DNA of 12,455 nucleotides from Methanobacteriota archaeon (lineage in GTDB: Archaea > Hydrothermarchaeota > Hydrothermarchaeia > Hydrothermarchaeales > JACRDW01), in contig JACRDW010000050.1 in the NCBI GenBank assembly GCA_016212785.1, forward strand, positions 1 to 12,455, in the 5' to 3' direction. The notes beneath the pieces are model-generated. The model worked only from the letters and a program-made list of their open reading frames with translations. It made no database searches and was not told where the DNA came from. The translations under genes and the position numbers were made by a program. Shown one piece after another: positions 6,231 through 12,455 of this stretch; positions within the stretch are counted from its first letter, which is position 1, and each line of letters starts with the position of its first letter.

Positions 6231-7424
6231 ATGCCTCCCTTCGACCCAGGACAGGTGCTCTGGATGCTCATGTTTTTTGCATTCGTCTTCATTTATCCAA
6301 AGTACATGCTCTACAAAATGATTTCGGACATAGAGGAAGTAGCCAAGACTCTCGAAGGTTATACGAGAGATGCAGTCGAGATAATCGTAAAAACCTCAAA
6401 AGAGAAGGGAAAGCCGGAAATAGAGCCGAAGAAGACCATTGAGAATGCCTTCGAATTCTTTTTAATACCGCCTGTGGACTTAGACCCCTACGGGATTCTA
6501 AAAAAAATCGAGCACATAATAGACAAAACAGAGGATAGATTAGAGGAAATTGCAGGAAAAATTGCACCGCAGAGCGATGCTGTGTGGAGGGCAAACACGA
6601 TTTCGCTGGTGAAGGCAGGCATAGGATTAAACAACATCGCAAAGATTGTGCGCCACTACGTCGAGTTCGTCAAGAAGACAGGAAACCTGCAAATTGCGAT
6701 GATTGTGCAGATGAGCCTTCCCCTCATTAAAAGAATAGCAAAGGCGCAGATGAAAGGCGTGGAAGCAATAGCGCAGGGCAAGCCCATAGGCGACTGCATA
6801 GGTCCCCTCGTTGCCGCAAATTTAATTAAAACGGAAGAGCACTACGAAGTCGCCAGAGATATAATCTGCCACGAAACGGAAATCTCTGACAGAGAGATTT
6901 TCATACTGAAGGCAAACGGACCTGGGGCAAATCTCGGAAAATTTGGCGATGGAGTAAAGAAGCTGTGCGAAGAAAACAAAATCTCGAAAATTATTACAGT
7001 AGATGCAAGCCTGAAGCTTGAAGGCGAGAAAACAGGAAAAGTTGCGGAAGGTATAGGTGCGGCGATAGGCGACCCCGGTCCGGAGAAGGCGAAAATGGAG
7101 GAGGCGGCGCTGAAGAATAACATTCCCTTAGAAGCCTATGCAATAAAAATGAGCATAGAGGAAGCAATTGCACCAATGACCAAAGAAATCGGCGAGTCAG
7201 TGAAAAGCGCTCTGGAAATGCTGAGCGAGAGCGTGGAGAGAGTGCCGAAAGAAAGCAAAATAATAATCGTGGGCGTCGGCAACGCATGCGGAATCGGAAA
7301 CTCGCTGCAGTCCGTGAAAGATTTGCAATTGCCTGAAAAGGAGGAAGAGGAAAAGGAAGAAACCCTCGCAGACAAAATAATAAAAGCGCTAGTCAAGCCG
7401 CCGGAGAAGCCGAAAGAGAAGTAA
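6231..7424 (+). CDS. DUF1512 family protein, membrane-anchored
   Basis: This 397-residue protein fits the archaeal DUF1512 family, whose function is unknown. One hydrophobic segment at about residues 8-28 should anchor the N terminus in the membrane, followed by a long cytosolic region. Conserved-looking blocks are the helical VDLDPYGILKKIEHIIDKTEDR (split here as VDLDPYGILKK and IEHIIDKTEDR), SLVKAGIGLNNIAKIVRHY, LKANGPGANLGKFG and IIIVGVGNACGIGNS; the glycine-rich ANGPGANLG and GVGNACGIG could be ligand-binding loops, but this is inference. The C terminus is a charged EEEEKEE and KPPEKPKEK tail, and its codons include a 28-nt pure-purine run at 7335-7362. A good Shine-Dalgarno AGGTGA sits 4 nt before the ATG. 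Arginine codons are almost all AGA/AGG, a useful reference for the block that follows. Confidence 0.88.
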   Translation: MPPFDPGQVLWMLMFFAFVFIYPKYMLYKMISDIEEVAKTLEGYTRDAVEIIVKTSKEKGKPEIEPKKTIENAFEFFLIPPVDLDPYGILKKIEHIIDKTEDRLEEIAGKIAPQSDAVWRANTISLVKAGIGLNNIAKIVRHYVEFVKKTGNLQIAMIVQMSLPLIKRIAKAQMKGVEAIAQGKPIGDCIGPLVAANLIKTEEHYEVARDIICHETEISDREIFILKANGPGANLGKFGDGVKKLCEENKISKIITVDASLKLEGEKTGKVAEGIGAAIGDPGPEKAKMEEAALKNNIPLEAYAIKMSIEEAIAPMTKEIGESVKSALEMLSESVERVPKESKIIIVGVGNACGIGNSLQSVKDLQLPEKEEEEKEETLADKIIKALVKPPEKPKEK

Positions 7425-7448
7425 ATAGTGGCGCGGATTGGCGTCTCA

Positions 7449-7472
7449 AATACTACACTAGTCCTATTCAAA
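7449..7472. repeat. 24-nt direct repeat, left copy
   Basis: The sequence is AATACTACACTA, then GT, then CCTATTCAAA. It matches 11390-11413 at 22 of 24 positions, differing only in the central two bases (GT here, AC there). It lies 24 nt after the DUF1512 stop codon and marks the left edge of the accessory block. It may be an attachment-like site or a dispersed intergenic repeat; the window does not decide. Confidence 0.7.
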
Positions 7473-7506
7473 CGTCTTTCTCTACATAAGCACAAGATAG
7501 TTTGGA

Positions 7507-7762
7507 ATGATTTTAGAATTTGCCGACGGAAGTTTAAATCACAAGCAAATTTTTAAAGACGGCGGACACGACTGCTACCTGATGGGGAAGGTCTGCTTTA
7601 AAAAAAAAGATACTGGTAACTGGGCCTAACAGTAGACTACTCGAAGACTCAAAATTAAAGCCGGAGTTTGCATTTCCGTTCTGCGGTGTCATGCTTACGA
7701 GAGCGACTGAAATCGTTGCCATGATTAAGAAGAAGCGCCCCGAATTTTTAACAGTTACTTAG
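7507..7762 (+). pseudogene. Small gene broken by a frameshift at a run of nine A
   Basis: The 334 bp between DUF1512 and DUF202 (7425-7758) hold a left repeat copy and this remnant. From ATG 7507 a 40-residue reading frame runs to TAA at 7627-7629. Near its end is a run of nine A (7600-7608). Moving forward one base there opens a second frame of about 50 codons (from ATA 7610: ILVTGPNSRLLED, PEFAFPFCGVMLTRATEI, IKKKRPEF) ending in TAG at 7760-7762. That frame has no start codon of its own, and a stop (7580-7582) lies just before it. Joined, the two give a protein of about 84 residues. Its end overlaps the convergent DUF202 stop by 4 nt, as real genes do elsewhere in this window. I do not recognise the family. 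It could be a pseudogene, a programmed frameshift or a sequencing error. Confidence 0.5.
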
Positions 7763-8175
7763 TAGATACGACTGATTGTATTCAGGTATATAGCTAAAAA
7801 AATTGCTACTAAAATAATTAAACCAGCCACAAGCATATCAAGCAGGATAGATGGGCGATAGTAAACATCTGTTTCAATTTCACGTTTAATCATCAAAAAC
7901 CGATATGTAGCCAACAACGTCGTTACGGCTCCAATAATAATCAATACAATCCCTAACATACTCGAGATACCCATTGAAGGCGTGGGCGGAAGTTTTTTAA
8001 CTCCACTTAAGGTCGCAAGTTGTTGAAGGAATATATCAAACCTTTCTACTATGAAGCCAAGAGCCATAATAGCTATGCTCGTGCGCACCCAAGCCAAAAA
8101 AGTACGCTCATTAGCGAAGTGCACCCTCCGATGAAAGTGCGCTTCATCTATTCTTTTCCCTGCTTCAGAGTCCAT
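7759..8175 (-). CDS. DUF202 family membrane protein (YidH-like)
   Basis: The protein has 138 residues, with the DUF202 signature FANERTFLAWVRTS at 20-33 leading into the first membrane helix. Predicted helices are at about 29-46, 72-94 and 111-133. The family is widespread but its molecular role is unsettled. The ATG at 8175 lies 34 nt after the end of the tandem UspA gene. A weak TATA-like GATAAAACTTTAA about 26 nt upstream of the ATG could give its own leaderless transcript, or it may be read through from the operon. Codon use is unusual for the window: 7 of 10 arginines are CGN, whereas the DUF1512 gene has 7 of 8 as AGA/AGG. This points to a separate origin. It overlaps the broken gene at its 3' end. 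Confidence 0.88.
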   Translation of the reverse strand: MDSEAGKRIDEAHFHRRVHFANERTFLAWVRTSIAIMALGFIVERFDIFLQQLATLSGVKKLPPTPSMGISSMLGIVLIIIGAVTTLLATYRFLMIKREIETDVYYRPSILLDMLVAGLIILVAIFLAIYLNTISRIY

Positions 8176-8209
8176 AAATAAAGATGTTCTCCAGTATTAA
8201 AGTTTTATC

Positions 8210-9106
8210 CTAGCTTCTTACGATTAAAACCGGCTTGCTCGAGAGGTTGATTACGGCACCTGTAACGCTGCCTATAAGGAGCCTGCCAACATGCCCCATA
8301 CCACGAGAGCCTATGACTATCAAATCAAATTTTTTCTCCTCCGCCTCTTTTACAATTTCCTCGGCTGGATTTCCAACTCTTATGTTAGAGGCTAAATTTA
8401 AGCCGGCTACTTTTCCTACAGCTTGAGCCTCAGAGACGTATTTCTGCCCGGCGTCTTTTTTGTATGATTCTACCAATTTTTCCCTATCCTCAGGACTAAC
8501 GCCTGCAATTGCGGAGGAGTAGCTAATTGCATAGTCGTTGACCACGTGCAGCACCTCGACGAAAGCCCCTGTTTTTTTGGCAATGCTCACGGCAAACTCA
8601 GCAGATTTCCGGGAATACTTTGAACCGTCGACTGGCACAAGCAGTCTCTTGATGTCCGTAATCTTTGCCTTTGGGCTGATAATCATTACAGGGCAATACG
8701 CCTCCCTCACAACGCGGTCTGCGATACTGCCCAGCGCTATCCTGCTTCCGCTCTTTAACGAACCCATTATTATCATTGTCGCAGGCAGCTCTTTTGCCTC
8801 GTCTATAATCTCATCCACCGGCTCTCCTTCTCTTATTTTTGTCTTGACTGAAACTCCTTCCGCCGCAAAGAGCTTTTTAATCTCGCTGAGAAACTCTCCC
8901 CCCTTTTCATAAATTGATTTTTCCAAGATGCCGTGCAAAGTTTTTGTGTCAAAAAACTCTGATTGATGGCTTGTTTCTCTAATCAGCTTGGTGTTGACTA
9001 CATAAAGCGCAGTCGCTTCAGCGCCATAGTGCTTGATGAAATGTACTGCCTGTTCCGCAGCATCGCTCGAGCACTCTGTGCCGTCAATAGGTATTAAGAT
9101 TTTCAT
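8210..9106 (-). CDS. Tandem UspA-domain universal stress protein
   Basis: Two universal-stress domains are fused in 298 residues, roughly 1-147 and 152-298. Each begins with the family's beta strand and acidic residue (PIDGT with Asp8; PVDGS with Asp160). Domain 2 has the full nucleotide-binding signature G-2x-G-9x-G-S (Gly266, Gly269, Gly279, Ser280) and ends KPVLIV. In domain 1 the corresponding loop, GSLKSGSRIALGS (115-127), is two residues shorter and has Lys at the second glycine, so ATP binding may be limited to domain 2. UspA proteins are cytosolic sensors or chaperone-like factors in stress and energy limitation. The ATG follows the TauE stop with no gap (TAAATG), with a near-perfect Shine-Dalgarno AGGAGGG 6 nt upstream, so the two are coupled and this gene may be translated strongly. 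Confidence 0.94.
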   Translation of the reverse strand: MKILIPIDGTECSSDAAEQAVHFIKHYGAEATALYVVNTKLIRETSHQSEFFDTKTLHGILEKSIYEKGGEFLSEIKKLFAAEGVSVKTKIREGEPVDEIIDEAKELPATMIIMGSLKSGSRIALGSIADRVVREAYCPVMIISPKAKITDIKRLLVPVDGSKYSRKSAEFAVSIAKKTGAFVEVLHVVNDYAISYSSAIAGVSPEDREKLVESYKKDAGQKYVSEAQAVGKVAGLNLASNIRVGNPAEEIVKEAEEKKFDLIVIGSRGMGHVGRLLIGSVTGAVINLSSKPVLIVRS

Positions 9107-10036
9107 TTAATGCCCTCCTATGGAAATGCCTCCACTTAAAGCGCTTCTTATCATTAGCAGCCCAATTGGTATCATTATTACGCCGAATAGCCTTCTGAGT
9201 GTCATGGCCGGGAGCTTTTTGTTTAACCGCGTACCAAATACCGTGCCTAAGATTCCCCCCACCATCAGCAGAGAGCCGATGATGGGGTCCACGTCGCCTT
9301 TAGCGTAGTAGGTAGACGCGCCTACGGCCGCGGAGGCTATTATTTGAGTCAGGTCTGTTCCAACTGCAACCTTCATCGGAATACAAAGGAACACCAAACC
9401 CGGAACGAGCAAAAACCCGCCGCCGACTCCAAGCAGGCCTGCCAACAGGCCGACGCTGCCGCCGAGAAGCAGAATCTTCGGAACATCTATAGTATAATCC
9501 CCTATCGGGCATGTTCTTTTTATTGCCAGCGGCAAGCTGCTGACAAAGGCTACTGGGAGTATCAAAGCAAAGAGGTTATTTTTCTTTACTTTTGGCTGTG
9601 CTTTTGCGGTATCGTATTTAAAAGCGTGTTCTGCCTCGCTTTTCTTTGGGCTCCGCATGAATTTGAGCGCTATCAAAATTACAAAGACGCCGAAAATAAC
9701 TTTCAGGGCGTTTCCAGGCACGCGCTGAGCAAGCGTTGCTCCTACGTATGCCATCACGGAACCAGAGGATATTAATATAGCAGCCAGCTTCAAATCTGCC
9801 GAGCCATATTTGTAGTGCTGATATGCGCCAGACGCCGCTATTCCGGTGACCTGAAACAAACTAGTGCCGATGGCAGACCTTATTGGCATGCCGACGTAAA
9901 GCGTGAGAAACGGCACAATAAGTGTTCCGCCTCCTGCGCCCAGAAGCGCGGTTATGGTGCCCACTATGATTCCATAGGCGAATATTACCAGAATGTTTAC
10001 GTCTATGTTGGAAAAGACGGAATGAACGTAAAACAT
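9107..10036 (-). CDS. TauE/SafE family anion permease (sulfite-exporter-like)
   Basis: This 309-residue polytopic membrane protein has the internal duplication typical of TauE/SafE: LLGAGGGTLIVPF at 31-43 and LLGVGGGFLLVPG at 201-213, each followed by an IGTSLFQ or VGTDLTQ block. About eight membrane helices can be drawn, in two groups separated by a basic loop at about 127-153. Family members move sulfite, sulfoacetate, taurine-derived or other organic anions; the substrate cannot be told from sequence. It is the middle gene of an operon, 14 nt after the degenerate UspA gene and directly followed by the tandem UspA gene. A permease flanked by UspA proteins suggests that transport is regulated by, or linked to, cell energy state (inference). 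Confidence 0.92.
   Translation of the reverse strand: MFYVHSVFSNIDVNILVIFAYGIIVGTITALLGAGGGTLIVPFLTLYVGMPIRSAIGTSLFQVTGIAASGAYQHYKYGSADLKLAAILISSGSVMAYVGATLAQRVPGNALKVIFGVFVILIALKFMRSPKKSEAEHAFKYDTAKAQPKVKKNNLFALILPVAFVSSLPLAIKRTCPIGDYTIDVPKILLLGGSVGLLAGLLGVGGGFLLVPGLVFLCIPMKVAVGTDLTQIIASAAVGASTYYAKGDVDPIIGSLLMVGGILGTVFGTRLNKKLPAMTLRRLFGVIMIPIGLLMIRSALSGGISIGGH
9113..9119 (-). promoter_or_regulatory. Strong Shine-Dalgarno for the tandem UspA gene
   Basis: AGGAGGG lies inside the last codons of the TauE gene, 6 nt before the ATG at 9106. It is the best Shine-Dalgarno match seen in this window, and it confirms the start at 9106. Confidence 0.7.
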
Positions 10037-10050
10037 CGCAGCCCTCTGGA

Positions 10051-10557
10051 CTATGTACGCAACGGAGCAGTCTTCGAGCGGGCTCCAAACCAGCTCGTTA
10101 CTGCGTCTATAAAGCGTATGCTCTTCTTCTTAGGCGCAAACACTATCACGGGACAGGGGGCAACATTTAATAGACCGCTGGGCAGGGTCTGCGAGATAAT
10201 CGCTATTGCGCTTGTTTGCCTAGCCGCCCTAACTATCTCTTCGAGAGGGTTTCCTATCAATACCTTAGTAGAGCCCTCGATGCCCTGTTCGGAAAAGACG
10301 GCCTTAATTTCTCCCGCGATTTTTTCCCCTTCTTTCACAACTGCATCGGTTATCATCTTCCTTTTTGTCGCCGTATCAAAAAATTCGTCATCTGCCAGAA
10401 TTGCATCCTCAAGAAAGTCGCCATCAATGATGTAGAGCAAATCGGCGCCTATTTTTTCGTCAATTCTGTTTATCCAGTCCGTTACCTGGTTTATTATTGC
10501 CAGAAAGTCTTTTGACGTGCCTATCGTCAGCGGTATTATGACCTTTTTATCTTCCAT
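10051..10557 (-). CDS. Degenerate UspA-like protein, first gene of the USP-TauE-USP operon
   Basis: This 168-residue protein keeps the UspA fold pattern: an N-terminal strand KKVIIPLTIGT, a central IGNPLEEIVRAA helix, and a C-terminal CPVIVFAP strand. The nucleotide-binding features are lost: the conserved early Asp is Thr11, and the G-2x-G-9x-G loop is replaced by a short SQTLPSG at 122-128. A tail of about 25 residues after the fold (KKKSIRFIDAVTSWFGARSK) is basic and partly amphipathic and could contact membrane or permease; this is inference. A non-ATP-binding UspA homologue is the best description. The ATG at 10557 has a Shine-Dalgarno AGGAG 10 nt upstream. The gene faces the AT-rich control region, so its promoter probably drives the whole operon. 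Confidence 0.82.
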   Translation of the reverse strand: MEDKKVIIPLTIGTSKDFLAIINQVTDWINRIDEKIGADLLYIIDGDFLEDAILADDEFFDTATKRKMITDAVVKEGEKIAGEIKAVFSEQGIEGSTKVLIGNPLEEIVRAARQTSAIAIISQTLPSGLLNVAPCPVIVFAPKKKSIRFIDAVTSWFGARSKTAPLRT

Positions 10558-10752
10558 AAATAAAAATCTCCTTAATTTTTAATTATATTTAGATAAAAAA
10601 GCTAGTATTTATTATTTTTCTAAAATGAGTATTAATACTATCTTAATATTGTATTAAACTTGTATTAATATCATATTAGACTGTTTTTAAACTCTTTTCA
10701 AAAAGATATTTAAATCTAAGTTTAAACATGTTATCTTGGAGTTATAGCTTAT
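10558..10752. promoter_or_regulatory. AT-rich divergent control region
   Basis: This 195-bp spacer separates the leftward USP-TauE-USP operon from the rightward regulator gene and has no coding potential. TATA-like stretches near 10605-10619 (minus strand) and at 10706-10714 (ATATTTAAA, plus strand) are placed to serve the two directions. GGAG at 10738-10741 is a weak, distant Shine-Dalgarno for the regulator. A periodic repeat array lies between the promoters and is listed separately. Confidence 0.6.
10629..10716. repeat. Eight-unit 11-bp periodic array, likely operator
   Basis: Read in steps of 11 from 10629, the units are GTATTAATACT, ATCTTAATATT, GTATTAAACTT, GTATTAATATC, ATATTAGACTG, TTTTTAAACTC, TTTTCAAAAAG and ATATTTAAATC. 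Positions 2 and 4 are T in all eight; positions 5-7 are TAA in five of the eight (units 1-4 and 6). The period is close to one helical turn. The first unit is part of a perfect 12-bp palindrome AGTATTAATACT (10628-10639), and TTAATA-TTG-TATTAA forms another dyad at 10643-10657. Binding by the adjacent regulator is inferred. Confidence 0.55.
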
Positions 10753-11052
10753 ATGAACAAAAAATTGCTCTGGTGGATATTTGCAGTAAGCAGCGGCGGC
10801 AAGGTTAGGGCACGCATACTGCACATACTTAAAGACAAACCTTCGACATGCAGCCAGCTCGCTAAGGAATTGAACCTCACTTACCAGACCATCAGATACC
10901 ACCTTGCCATTCTTTTGGAAAACAAAGTTATCGTTTCCTCCGGGGATACTTCAATTGCAATATACTTCCTGAGCGACGAAATGGAAGGAGAGTGGGGGGA
11001 GTTCATGAGGATATGGGAACGAATTGAAAAAACAAGAAAAACTATATATTAA
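10753..11052 (+). CDS. Winged-helix-turn-helix transcriptional regulator (ArsR-like)
   Basis: The 99-residue protein is a single winged-helix domain. After KKLLWWIFAVSSGGKVRARIL (given here as two parts, KKLLWWIFAV and SSGGKVRARIL), the helix-turn-helix is at about residues 31-58, with CSQLAKELNL as the positioning helix and TYQTIRYHLAILLEN as the recognition helix. The wing is near 59-73. There is no ArsR metal-binding cysteine pair, and the only Cys is at residue 33. The C terminus is a short helix with aromatic residues (GEFMRIWERIEK), possibly for dimerisation. It is divergent from the USP-TauE-USP operon and next to the 11-bp array, so it probably controls that operon and itself. A membrane protein gene follows 26 nt downstream, likely in the same transcript. 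Confidence 0.88.
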   Translation: MNKKLLWWIFAVSSGGKVRARILHILKDKPSTCSQLAKELNLTYQTIRYHLAILLENKVIVSSGDTSIAIYFLSDEMEGEWGEFMRIWERIEKTRKTIY

Positions 11053-11078
11053 GGATTGAATATAATCGTTTTGAGAAA

Positions 11079-11372
11079 ATGGAAGATATTATTTGGGCAA
11101 CTAGGATGTCACTGGGCCTGATAAACATTGCACTGTTAATCTTCCTCATATACCACTTCAGCAAGAGGAGGAGCGAGATTCCGTCTATTTTTACTACTGG
11201 ATTTTTATTAATTGCTCTGGCGCTTTTTGTGAGAACGGTGCTTTCATCGCCTATAATACGATTCATTCTTTTTAATGAAGAGCGGCACACCATTGTTGAC
11301 CCGTACCGCCTTATTGCCGATGTATTCGAGTTTATTGCCTTGGGGACTTTCGTCTATATAAGTACGAGATAG
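11079..11372 (+). CDS. Small three-helix membrane protein downstream of the regulator
   Basis: This 97-residue protein has predicted membrane helices at about 10-28, 36-57 and 75-94, with a basic loop SKRRSE (28-33) after helix 1 and a charged stretch FNEERHTIVDPYR (65-77) before helix 3. I do not recognise a characterised family with confidence; the layout resembles small archaeal membrane proteins encoded next to winged-helix regulators. It starts 26 nt after the regulator, without a clear Shine-Dalgarno and without its own TATA box at the right distance, so co-transcription is likely. One possibility is a membrane sensor or anchor that controls the regulator, but nothing in the sequence proves it. 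The right-hand 24-nt repeat begins 17 nt after its stop. Confidence 0.75.
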   Translation: MEDIIWATRMSLGLINIALLIFLIYHFSKRRSEIPSIFTTGFLLIALALFVRTVLSSPIIRFILFNEERHTIVDPYRLIADVFEFIALGTFVYISTR

Positions 11373-11391
11373 TTGGAAATTTATATTCCAA
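11373..11391. repeat. Short inverted repeat after the membrane protein gene
   Basis: TTGGAA, seven bases, then TTCCAA: a perfect 6-bp dyad directly after the stop codon at 11370-11372 and running into the right-hand direct repeat. It might help end transcription or be a binding site, but the stem is short and no T-run follows. Confidence 0.35.
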
Positions 11392-11413
11392 TACTACACT
11401 AACCCTATTCAAA
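11390..11413. repeat. 24-nt direct repeat, right copy
   Basis: The sequence is AATACTACACTA, then AC, then CCTATTCAAA, identical to the copy at 7449-7472 except for the central two bases. It lies 22 nt beyond the rtcB stop codon, in the 63-bp convergent spacer. Both copies have the same orientation and bound the accessory block. Confidence 0.7.
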
Positions 11414-11435
11414 TTCAGCTTGATTAGTGGCCTCA

Positions 11436-12455
11436 TTACCCCTTCGCAACCCCGAGCGGTACAAGCTTTGCGACCAGCTTGGAAATCCCTGCTCCGTGCG
11501 CGCTCTTCACAACTTCTCCCACGTCCTTGTATGCTTCGTGCGCTTCCTCTGCAAGCACGGGCTTGCTCGCCGCCTTTACGTATATCCCCCTGCTTGCAAG
11601 CTCCTTTAGAATTTTGTCCCCCCAGAACTGCCTCTTGGCTGCTTCCCTGCTCATCTTTCTTCCTGCGCCGTGACAGGTTGAGCCAAAGGTTTCTGCCATC
11701 GCTCTCTCAGTTCCAGCGAGCAGATAGCTTTCTGAGCCCATGTCTCCAGGAATCAGCACAGGCTGACCGCAATCTCTGTACTTTTTGGGGATATGCTCAT
11801 TACCAGGTCCGAATGCTCTGGTTGCTCCTTTTCTGTGCACGTAGCACTCTCTTAAAGCACCGTCAATTCCATGCTTTTCGAATTTTGCAATGTTGTGCGC
11901 AACCTCATAGATTGTTGACATACCCATATTCTCTGCCTTTCTGCCCAAGACTTTTTCAAAGGATTCTCTCGTCCAGTGCGCTATCGCCTGCCTGTTAGCA
12001 AACCCGTAATTTACTCCGCAGCACATCGCAGCATAGTAGTCCTGCGCTTCCCTAGAGCTTGCGGGTGCGCACGCCAGCTGCCTGTCGGGCAATTCGATTT
12101 TATATTTTTTGGACGCAGCCTCCATGACTTTGAGGTAATCAGAGCAGATTTGATGCCCGCAGCCTCTTGAGCCGGAGTGAATCATCACAGTTACCTGACC
12201 TACTCCACTTATTCCAAACGCCTTTGCAATTTTCTCGTCGTATATCTCCTTGACCTCCTGGATTTCCAGAAAGTGATTGCCAGAGCCTAATGTTCCGAGC
12301 TGCGGCTCCCCTCTCTTCTTCGCAAAATCGCTGACCTTAGCAGCATCCGCCCCCTCCATGCAGCCGTTCTCTTCTATATTTTCTAAATCCTCAGCCCAGC
12401 CGTAGCCTTTCTCTACCGCCCACTTTGCGCCGTTTTCTAAAACTTCGTCAAGCTC
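11436..12455 (-). CDS. rtcB: RNA-splicing ligase RtcB, 5'-truncated
   Basis: RtcB joins tRNA exon halves (2',3'-cyclic phosphate or 3'-phosphate to 5'-OH) using GTP and Mn2+. The frame is open to the right edge; 340 residues are visible and about 140 N-terminal residues, including the GDVHxG region and a metal-binding Cys, lie beyond. Visible motifs are [13 protein letters not shown] (metal-site Asn/His), [58 protein letters not shown] and [15 protein letters not shown], whose His (visible residue 262) is the guanylylated nucleophile. The ATG at 12359 is internal, since typical RtcB sequence ([19 protein letters not shown]) precedes it. No intein lies in the visible part, although RtcB often carries one. 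It converges on the accessory block and ends 63 bp from the small membrane protein gene. Confidence 0.97.

What the first reader, a model, noticed from the sequence alone, without database searches (positions are those of the whole stretch)
7449..11413. Direct repeats bound an accessory stress/transport block inserted between two core genes
Two 24-nt sequences in the same orientation (22/24 identical, differing only in the middle two bases) lie 24 nt after the DUF1512 stop and 22 nt beyond the rtcB stop. Between them sit about 3.9 kb of accessory-type genes: a broken gene, DUF202, USP-TauE-USP, a regulator and a membrane protein. Deleting one repeat plus the block would leave two convergent core genes about 70 bp apart, the compact spacing seen elsewhere here. 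This fits a site-specific or repeat-mediated insertion. No integrase is visible.
Basis: partly seen in the sequence, partly recalled or inferred. Interest (0 to 1): 0.7.

Follow-up and report, generated by a model that had tools for sequence, protein, structure and literature searches.

The report
Leftover single CRISPR repeats, not insertion ends
The two matching 24-letter sequences are solitary CRISPR repeats scattered through an archaeal genome that seems to be losing its CRISPR immune system, so they are best read as scars of vanished arrays and not as the ends of an inserted gene block.

Summary
In detail: two 24-nt direct repeats (22/24) lie 24 nt after DUF1512 and 22 nt beyond rtcB. The interpretation changes. 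On the minus strand they are 30-nt CRISPR repeats (GTTTGAATAGGACTAGTGTAGTATTGAAAT and variants). The genome has five dispersed solo copies and no array. One copy follows cas4-cas1-cas2, with an in-frame TAG in cas1. A model from six solo copies also finds true arrays in three relatives. One pair of relatives shows how a solo repeat can arise: JdFR-17 (G007) has a type I-B cas operon and array; the syntenic locus of G006 keeps only the terminal repeat, homology ending at its edge. So W1 and W2 are most likely relics of lost arrays. At W1 the tail of a membrane-protein gene abuts the repeat, so it also marks a rearrangement junction. The block interval is variable: G015 has one DJ-1/PfpI-like gene between the same two genes and no repeat. 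Repeat-mediated insertion is not excluded, but the pair cannot be called att sites or target duplications.

The parts
6231..7424 (+). DUF1512 protein, left core neighbour
   Evidence: Pfam PF07431 2e-40 and PF23542 1.9e-59; present in 20 of 23 class genomes
7444..7473 (-). Solo CRISPR repeat W1, GTTTGAATAGGACTAGTGTAGTATTTGAGA; first 25 nt identical to the C74 repeat, 3' end degenerate as in terminal repeats of arrays
   Evidence: (E 1.2e-8; the model was built from this copy among others)
7473..7500 (+). Tail (last 8 codons and stop, VFLYISTR*) of a DUF2569-like membrane-protein gene, cut at the repeat edge
   Evidence: 25/28 nt to the tail of the paralogue on contig C64, alignment starting at the first base after the 24-mer; three-frame reading
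7507..7759 (+). Remnant of a possibly DUF1786-like gene in two frames (7507-7605 and 7607-7759)
   Evidence: weak Pfam match of the first piece to PF08735, E 0.0068, below cut-off, none for the second; no homologue found for the two joined
7759..8175 (-). DUF202 membrane protein
   Evidence: PF02656 1.1e-18
8210..9106 (-). Tandem universal stress protein
   Evidence: PF00582 1.2e-61, two stretches
9107..10036 (-). TauE/SafE-type transporter
   Evidence: PF01925 3.6e-52
10051..10557 (-). USP-like ORF
   Evidence: no Pfam hit at E<=0.01; tblastn to ORFs near homologous HTH/membrane genes in relatives, best 5e-15 in G006
10753..11052 (+). ArsR-type winged HTH regulator
   Evidence: PF12840 1.7e-10
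11079..11372 (+). DUF2569-like small membrane protein; beside the same type of HTH in relatives
   Evidence: matches in 17 of 23 class genomes at E<=1; PF10754 0.0011, below cut-off; HTH adjacency
11385..11414 (-). Solo CRISPR repeat W2, ATTTGAATAGGGTTAGTGTAGTATTGGAAT
   Evidence: (E 1.9e-7; model built from this copy among others)
11436..12455 (-). rtcB (runs off the contig; the 47 residues at the window end recur on contig C61)
   Evidence: PF01139 8.6e-139

Best explanation
The two direct repeats are solitary relics of type I-B CRISPR arrays in a Hydrothermarchaeota-related genome whose CRISPR-Cas system has decayed. Arrays contract by recombination between repeats; an array or whole locus can vanish and leave one repeat, often the leader-distal one, which typically already has a damaged 3' end. 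In this genome five such scars were found. One is a lone repeat at a leader-like position behind cas4-cas1-cas2, where cas1 is interrupted by a stop. Two lie on either side of the stress/transport block. The block is an accessory module of a kind found in relatives, in a variable interval; its flanking repeats mark places where arrays once sat, and at W1 a neighbouring gene was broken at the repeat. Shown: repeat identity, dispersal, no array found, the interrupted cas1, the pair of relatives in which a solo terminal repeat stands in place of a full locus. Inferred: that W1 and W2 arose the same way, and that they have no present function.
For: Five copies in the own genome and no array. The C74 copy has the full 30-nt consensus and starts 120 nt after cas2; the interval has weak similarity to the leader of G007 (local score 15 against a maximum of 13 in 500 single-base shuffles). 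Model R1, made from six solo copies, also finds arrays of G007 (70 matches), G010 (12) and G006 (5), period about 66 nt. The cas operon of G007 is type I-B by PADLOC profiles, and Cas4, the Cas1 C-terminal piece and Cas2 of G000 match b-type models best. G006 versus G007: 90-96% identity on both sides; 9.3 kb of cas operon plus array in G007 is replaced by about 0.8 kb with a PIN-domain gene in G006, and homology on the array side stops at the 5' edge of the terminal repeat, which G006 retains. Differences of the four other G000 copies from the C74 repeat: 5 of 88 positions in the first 22 nt, 10 of 32 in the last 8, Fisher p 0.0006, as described for terminal repeats in PMC8047081 (passages). 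No Cas7 by PF01905 in G000, though the model detects that of G007.
Against: The copies were found with a pattern covering repeat positions 2-25, so the 3' clustering of differences is partly ascertainment and the p-value is too good. W1, W2, C98 and C148 have no recognisable leader beside them, and W2 begins 21 nt from the rtcB stop. Two repeats flanking a block could still record one event. G010 has an undamaged solo repeat directly before a predicted start codon, which would fit a functional element. PF01905 found Cas7 in only 4 of 23 genomes and missed four others that have Cas1, so its absence in G000 is weak; Cas3, Cas5 and Cas8 were not searched. In G006/G007 the direction of the exchange is not proven. 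No array with exactly this repeat was found, so the parent array is inferred.
Confidence: 0.72

Rival explanations
1. Repeat-mediated insertion: a DNA circle or segment carrying the block and one CRISPR repeat recombined with a solo repeat (or small array) lying between DUF1512 and rtcB, giving repeat-block-repeat.
For: Both repeats have the same orientation and sit within 25 nt of the two core genes; the two genes are neighbours in G015 with other content; read on the minus strand W2 (3' end nearly intact) precedes the block and W1 (3' end degenerate) follows it, as first and last repeats of one array would. Integration through recombination between solitary repeats and resident arrays has been proposed for viruses (PMC8616872 and PMC10651486, passages).
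Against: Three more copies lie elsewhere beside unrelated genes; the pair differs at its centre; no single-repeat empty site seen; HTH, membrane and USP genes of this kind occur together in relatives, and GC is 47.7% in the USP/TauE genes against 46.4% left of the block.
Confidence: 0.17
2. The solo repeats are functional RNA or DNA elements: solitary repeat units like RNA anti-CRISPRs, or crRNA-like regulators.
For: The conserved part is the 5' 22-23 nt; a solo copy also exists in G010, which has arrays. Solitary repeat units with function are known from phages (PMC10651486, passages).
Against: In G000 cas1 is interrupted and no Cas7 was found (the latter weak); the last 8 nt, which would form the crRNA handle (recalled), are damaged in W1 and C98; in G017/G018 the orthologous solo repeat differs at 3 of 30 positions against 11 of 298 in 150-nt flanks, so no sign of constraint; no match in viral contigs for two patterns.
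Confidence: 0.06
3. Assembly artefact: contigs were joined at the shared 22-24 nt.
For: Fragmented assembly (161 contigs); at W1 and at the G016 copy a gene piece abuts the repeat.
Against: DUF1512 and rtcB, on either side of both repeats, are also neighbours in G015, which a false join would hardly restore; the copies differ in sequence; G017 and G018 carry the same solo repeat at the same place in two assemblies.
Confidence: 0.05

Closest known systems
Degenerate terminal (trailer) repeats and collapsed CRISPR arrays (PMC8047081, passages)
   Same: 3' end damaged, 5' part intact; loss of spacers by recombination between repeats; one repeat may be left
   Different: Here five solo copies in one genome, no array found, and at W1 a gene piece at the repeat edge
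Single-repeat or degenerate CRISPR loci at known array sites in Escherichia/Salmonella (PMC2886076, passages)
   Same: A locus may be reduced to one repeat
   Different: There at four known array sites; here dispersed, and only the C74 copy sits by cas genes
Type I-B CRISPR-Cas of Ca. Pyrohabitans sp. JdFR-17 (G007)
   Same: Same repeat family (24/30 to the C74 repeat), same order cas4-cas1-cas2 then leader and repeat
   Different: JdFR-17 has cas8b-7b-5b-3 and several arrays; in G000 cas4, an interrupted cas1 and cas2 were found, and no array
Solitary repeat units / RNA anti-CRISPRs of phages (PMC10651486, passages)
   Same: Single CRISPR repeat outside an array
   Different: Chromosomal neighbours, no phage gene recognised beside the window copies, host machinery apparently decayed
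CRISPR loci at rearrangement sites in Thermotogales (as cited in PMC5052741, passages)
   Same: CRISPR repeats found at rearrangement junctions
   Different: Here only solo repeats remain

Membership tests
CRISPR repeat (type I-B family of this class) | Sequence matches repeats of true arrays in relatives | tested here: met
   R1 retrieves arrays in G006, G007, G010; 24/30 identity
CRISPR repeat (type I-B family of this class) | Clustered at regular spacing with unique spacers | tested here: not met
   Five single copies, none with a second repeat at spacer distance; hence relic or solo, not a working array
CRISPR repeat (type I-B family of this class) | Next to cas genes and a leader | tested here: inconclusive
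   Cas genes beside the C74 copy only, leader similarity weak; the window copies have neither
att sites / target-site duplication of one inserted element | Repeat found only at the two ends of the element, copies identical | tested here: not met
   Three further copies, pair 22/24
att sites / target-site duplication of one inserted element | Empty site with one copy in relatives | tested here: inconclusive
   G015 adjacency has no copy; no other adjacency seen among the 23 genomes, some hidden by contig ends
Solitary repeat units / RNA anti-CRISPR | Located in a virus or other mobile element | tested here: not met
   0 viral contigs for two patterns; neighbours are chromosomal-type genes
Solitary repeat units / RNA anti-CRISPR | Transcribed and bound by Cas6/Cas7 | not testable with these tools
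   needs RNA and protein work; Cas7 not found in G000 (weak); the Cas6 model is uninformative here, 1 of 23 genomes

The most novel reading that the evidence does not exclude
CRISPR repeats in this lineage act as recurrent breakage-and-joining sites: chromosomal gene modules enter or leave between dispersed solo repeats, by recombination or by Cas1-Cas2 joining DNA at the repeat edge, and the 3.9-kb block between W2 and W1 is one such oversized insert in place of spacers.
Probability: 0.1. Interest if true: 0.7.

Novelty: new member of a known kind. Interest (0 to 1): 0.38.

Why it matters
It corrects a tempting reading (a mobile block with att-like ends) and gives a compact case of how CRISPR immunity may disappear from a genome: an interrupted cas1, a lone repeat at the leader-like position, and scattered single repeats. 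Solo repeats are easily missed by searches for arrays, so they can serve as fossils of past arrays and as markers of rearrangement, and they can mislead searches for insertion boundaries.

Tried and rejected
Transposon/att reading: dropped because of dispersed copies. RNA family or tRNA in the window: none by Rfam gathering scores or ARAGORN. crRNA-like regulator: disfavoured because the 3' 8 nt are damaged in W1 and C98. Idea that the 36-40 nt beside W1 is a surviving spacer: the membrane-gene tail there is of spacer size, but no second repeat was found beyond it, and the G016 HTH reading runs longer than a spacer to the contig end; not adopted. C148: the reading that ends in the repeat looked to me like a nicotinamidase piece (recall only); Pfam gave no support, so it is not counted as a broken gene. 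C98: the reading that ends inside the repeat resembles the end of a PIN-type ORF on C148 (55% over 20 aa, E 0.04, in a search of fetched loci only; no Pfam match) and may be a natural end. Pyrrolysine reading of the TAG in cas1: no PylS above cut-off in G000, only in G011, so a plain stop is likelier, in an assembly 93% complete. Cas6 by PF10040: uninformative. Exact-pattern scan of genome contigs: 0 (which may leave out the own genome); looser pattern: six contigs. Viral contigs: 0 and 0. One search also matched G012 with two mismatches, inside an ORF, with one reversed-pattern control hit in the same genome; taken as chance. Papers: the listings of searches showed, by title and abstract start, none on solo CRISPR repeats in archaeal chromosomes (72: one paper, not opened); one search listed the review PMC8616872 and PMC10651486; one search (CRISPR with Hydrothermarchaeota) listed 8 papers, none opened; searches led to PMC5052741, PMC4869251 and PMC8047081. 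Of PMC2886076, PMC5052741, PMC10651486, PMC8616872, PMC4869251 and PMC8047081 I saw passages only. Mended after self-check: the ascertainment bias in the 3'-end count and the weakness of the Cas7 test are now stated, and confidence in the best explanation was lowered from 0.75 to 0.72, with the insertion rival raised from 0.15 to 0.17 and the artefact rival from 0.04 to 0.05.
Full report
What was claimed and what is there. The window is contig C161 of a 1.11-Mb, 161-contig, 93%-complete genome. The two 24-nt repeats are real: 7449-7472 and 11390-11413, two differences, 24 nt from the DUF1512 stop and 22 nt from the rtcB stop. They exceed chance: mean 0 in 200 shuffles of the window and none for the reversed pattern in the genome.

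They are not a private pair. With up to three mismatches the genome holds five copies: the two in the window and one each on C74, C98 and C148. The copy on C74 lies behind cas4-cas1-cas2, and on that strand reads GTTTGAATAGGACTAGTGTAGTATTGAAAT. The 30-nt unit, its ATTGAAA end and its place suggested a CRISPR repeat. This was tested. A sequence-only model from six solo copies (five of G000, one of G016) was run over the 23 genomes of the class. It returned the five own copies (E 2e-9 to 2e-7, by construction), the G016 copy, a copy in G017 (5e-5), and, more weakly (E 0.01 to 0.5), regularly spaced arrays in G007 (70 matches), G010 (12) and G006 (5). Candidates were scored in full for G000 (73 of 73) but capped at 150 in 9 of the 23 genomes. 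The repeat of G007 is GTCAGAATAAGACTAATGTAGGATTGAAA(G/T) or close to it, period about 66, 24 of 30 like the C74 repeat. Of the remaining weak matches, those in G022 and on C113 of G016 were inspected (best 19 of 30); those in G011 and on C31 of G017 were not. All four are in the same order as G000, hence the inferred Hydrothermarchaeota relation.

CRISPR state of the genome. No array was found by pattern or model. Cas1 gives 14 matches in 9 of 23 genomes. The full-length matches are uninterrupted except that of G000, which has one TAG; two partial matches, in G020 (TGA) and G002 (TAG, below cut-off), also contain stops. G000 has no PylS above cut-off. Cas7 by PF01905 is absent in G000 although the model finds that of G007; but it hits only 4 of 23 genomes and misses G001, G002, G011 and G019, which have Cas1, so this is weak. 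G016, G017 and G018 (80-90% complete) have solo copies but no Cas1 match (G018 at E 0.2, accepted because it is orthologous to the G017 copy).

How a solo repeat may arise: a worked case. In JdFR-17, contig C9 carries cas8b-cas7b-cas5b-cas3, a toxin-antitoxin-like pair (named from recall), cas4-cas1-cas2 and an array whose last repeat ends GGACTAAAA where the others end GGATTGAAA. G006 is syntenic at 90-96% identity on both sides, but 9.3 kb (C9 2838-12111) is missing and about 0.8 kb with a PIN-domain gene stands instead; homology resumes at the first base of the terminal repeat, kept as a solo copy. Thus a type I-B locus was exchanged for a solo terminal repeat, or the reverse; the direction is not proven, but a damaged terminal repeat without an array is most simply a leftover. 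A review states that terminal repeats often carry 3' changes and that recombination between repeats can delete spacers and could remove an array (PMC8047081, passages).

Application to the window. The four other G000 copies differ from the C74 copy at 5 of 88 positions in the first 22 nt and 10 of 32 in the last 8 (p 0.0006); since the search pattern covered repeat positions 2-25, part of this is ascertainment. W1 and C98 look like terminal repeats. At W1 the base next to the 24-mer begins the last eight codons and stop of a DUF2569-like membrane gene, 25 of 28 nt like the tail of the paralogue on C64; the likeness to the window's own membrane gene scores 22 against at most 19 for 593 other window segments. 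It is followed by pieces of a possibly DUF1786-like gene in two frames (weak). In G016 the repeat edge abuts what reads as the second half of an ArsR-type HTH (profile positions 30-46 of 47, E 0.0004, slightly below cut-off). So a joint at the repeat edge is seen in G006 by synteny, at W1, and probably in G016. For C98 and C148 I looked for the same and could not show it; W2 and C74 have complete gene ends around them.

The block. HTH and membrane-protein genes occur side by side (mostly divergent, whereas in the window they are in tandem), often with USP genes near, in relatives, so such a module is normal for the class. DUF1512 is in 20 of 23 genomes and rtcB in 17 of 23. Only in G015 were they seen side by side, with a DJ-1/PfpI-like gene (named from recall) between and no repeat anywhere in that genome by pattern or model; in G011 they are about 55 kb apart.

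Function. Nothing found points to a present role. The G017/G018 solo repeat varies at 3 of 30 positions against 11 of 298 in its 150-nt flanks (p 0.13): no sign of constraint, though not significantly faster. G010 has an undamaged solo repeat immediately before the predicted start codon of a 197-aa ORF with no Pfam match; this is the best candidate for a functional solo repeat and deserves a look.

Verdict. Repeat identity is firm; origin by array loss is likely; the relation between the two repeats and the block is open. A new instance of a known kind, of moderate interest.

Noticed in passing
G010 C93 (L147 6551-6580 and ORF 6581-7174): An undamaged solo CRISPR repeat lies directly before the predicted start codon of a 197-aa ORF without Pfam match, in a genome with arrays: possible repeat-containing 5' leader.
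   Followed up: partly
L011 5163-5165: In-frame TAG in cas1 in the FFNY-GYY stretch; G000 has no PylS above cut-off, while G011 of the same class has one.
   Followed up: partly
G006 C1 (L145 7332-8143) against G007 C9 2838-12111: A I-B CRISPR-Cas locus in one species stands where its relative has a short stretch with a PIN-domain gene.
   Followed up: partly
L125 and L128, between GPN-GTPase-like and RecQ-like genes (names from recall): Orthologous solo repeat in G017 and G018; beginning about 65 nt upstream, a sequence resembling the start of the repeat in inverted orientation (GTTTCAATTCTACATGTCC).
   Followed up: no
window 12315-12455 and G000 C61 1-141: rtcB recurs on contig C61 (47 residues identical), so the two contigs probably adjoin.
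   Followed up: no
G015 C21, C191, C209: G015 has more than one rtcB-like gene: the C191 match covers the whole query, and C209 and C21 hold two partial ones at contig ends.
   Followed up: no
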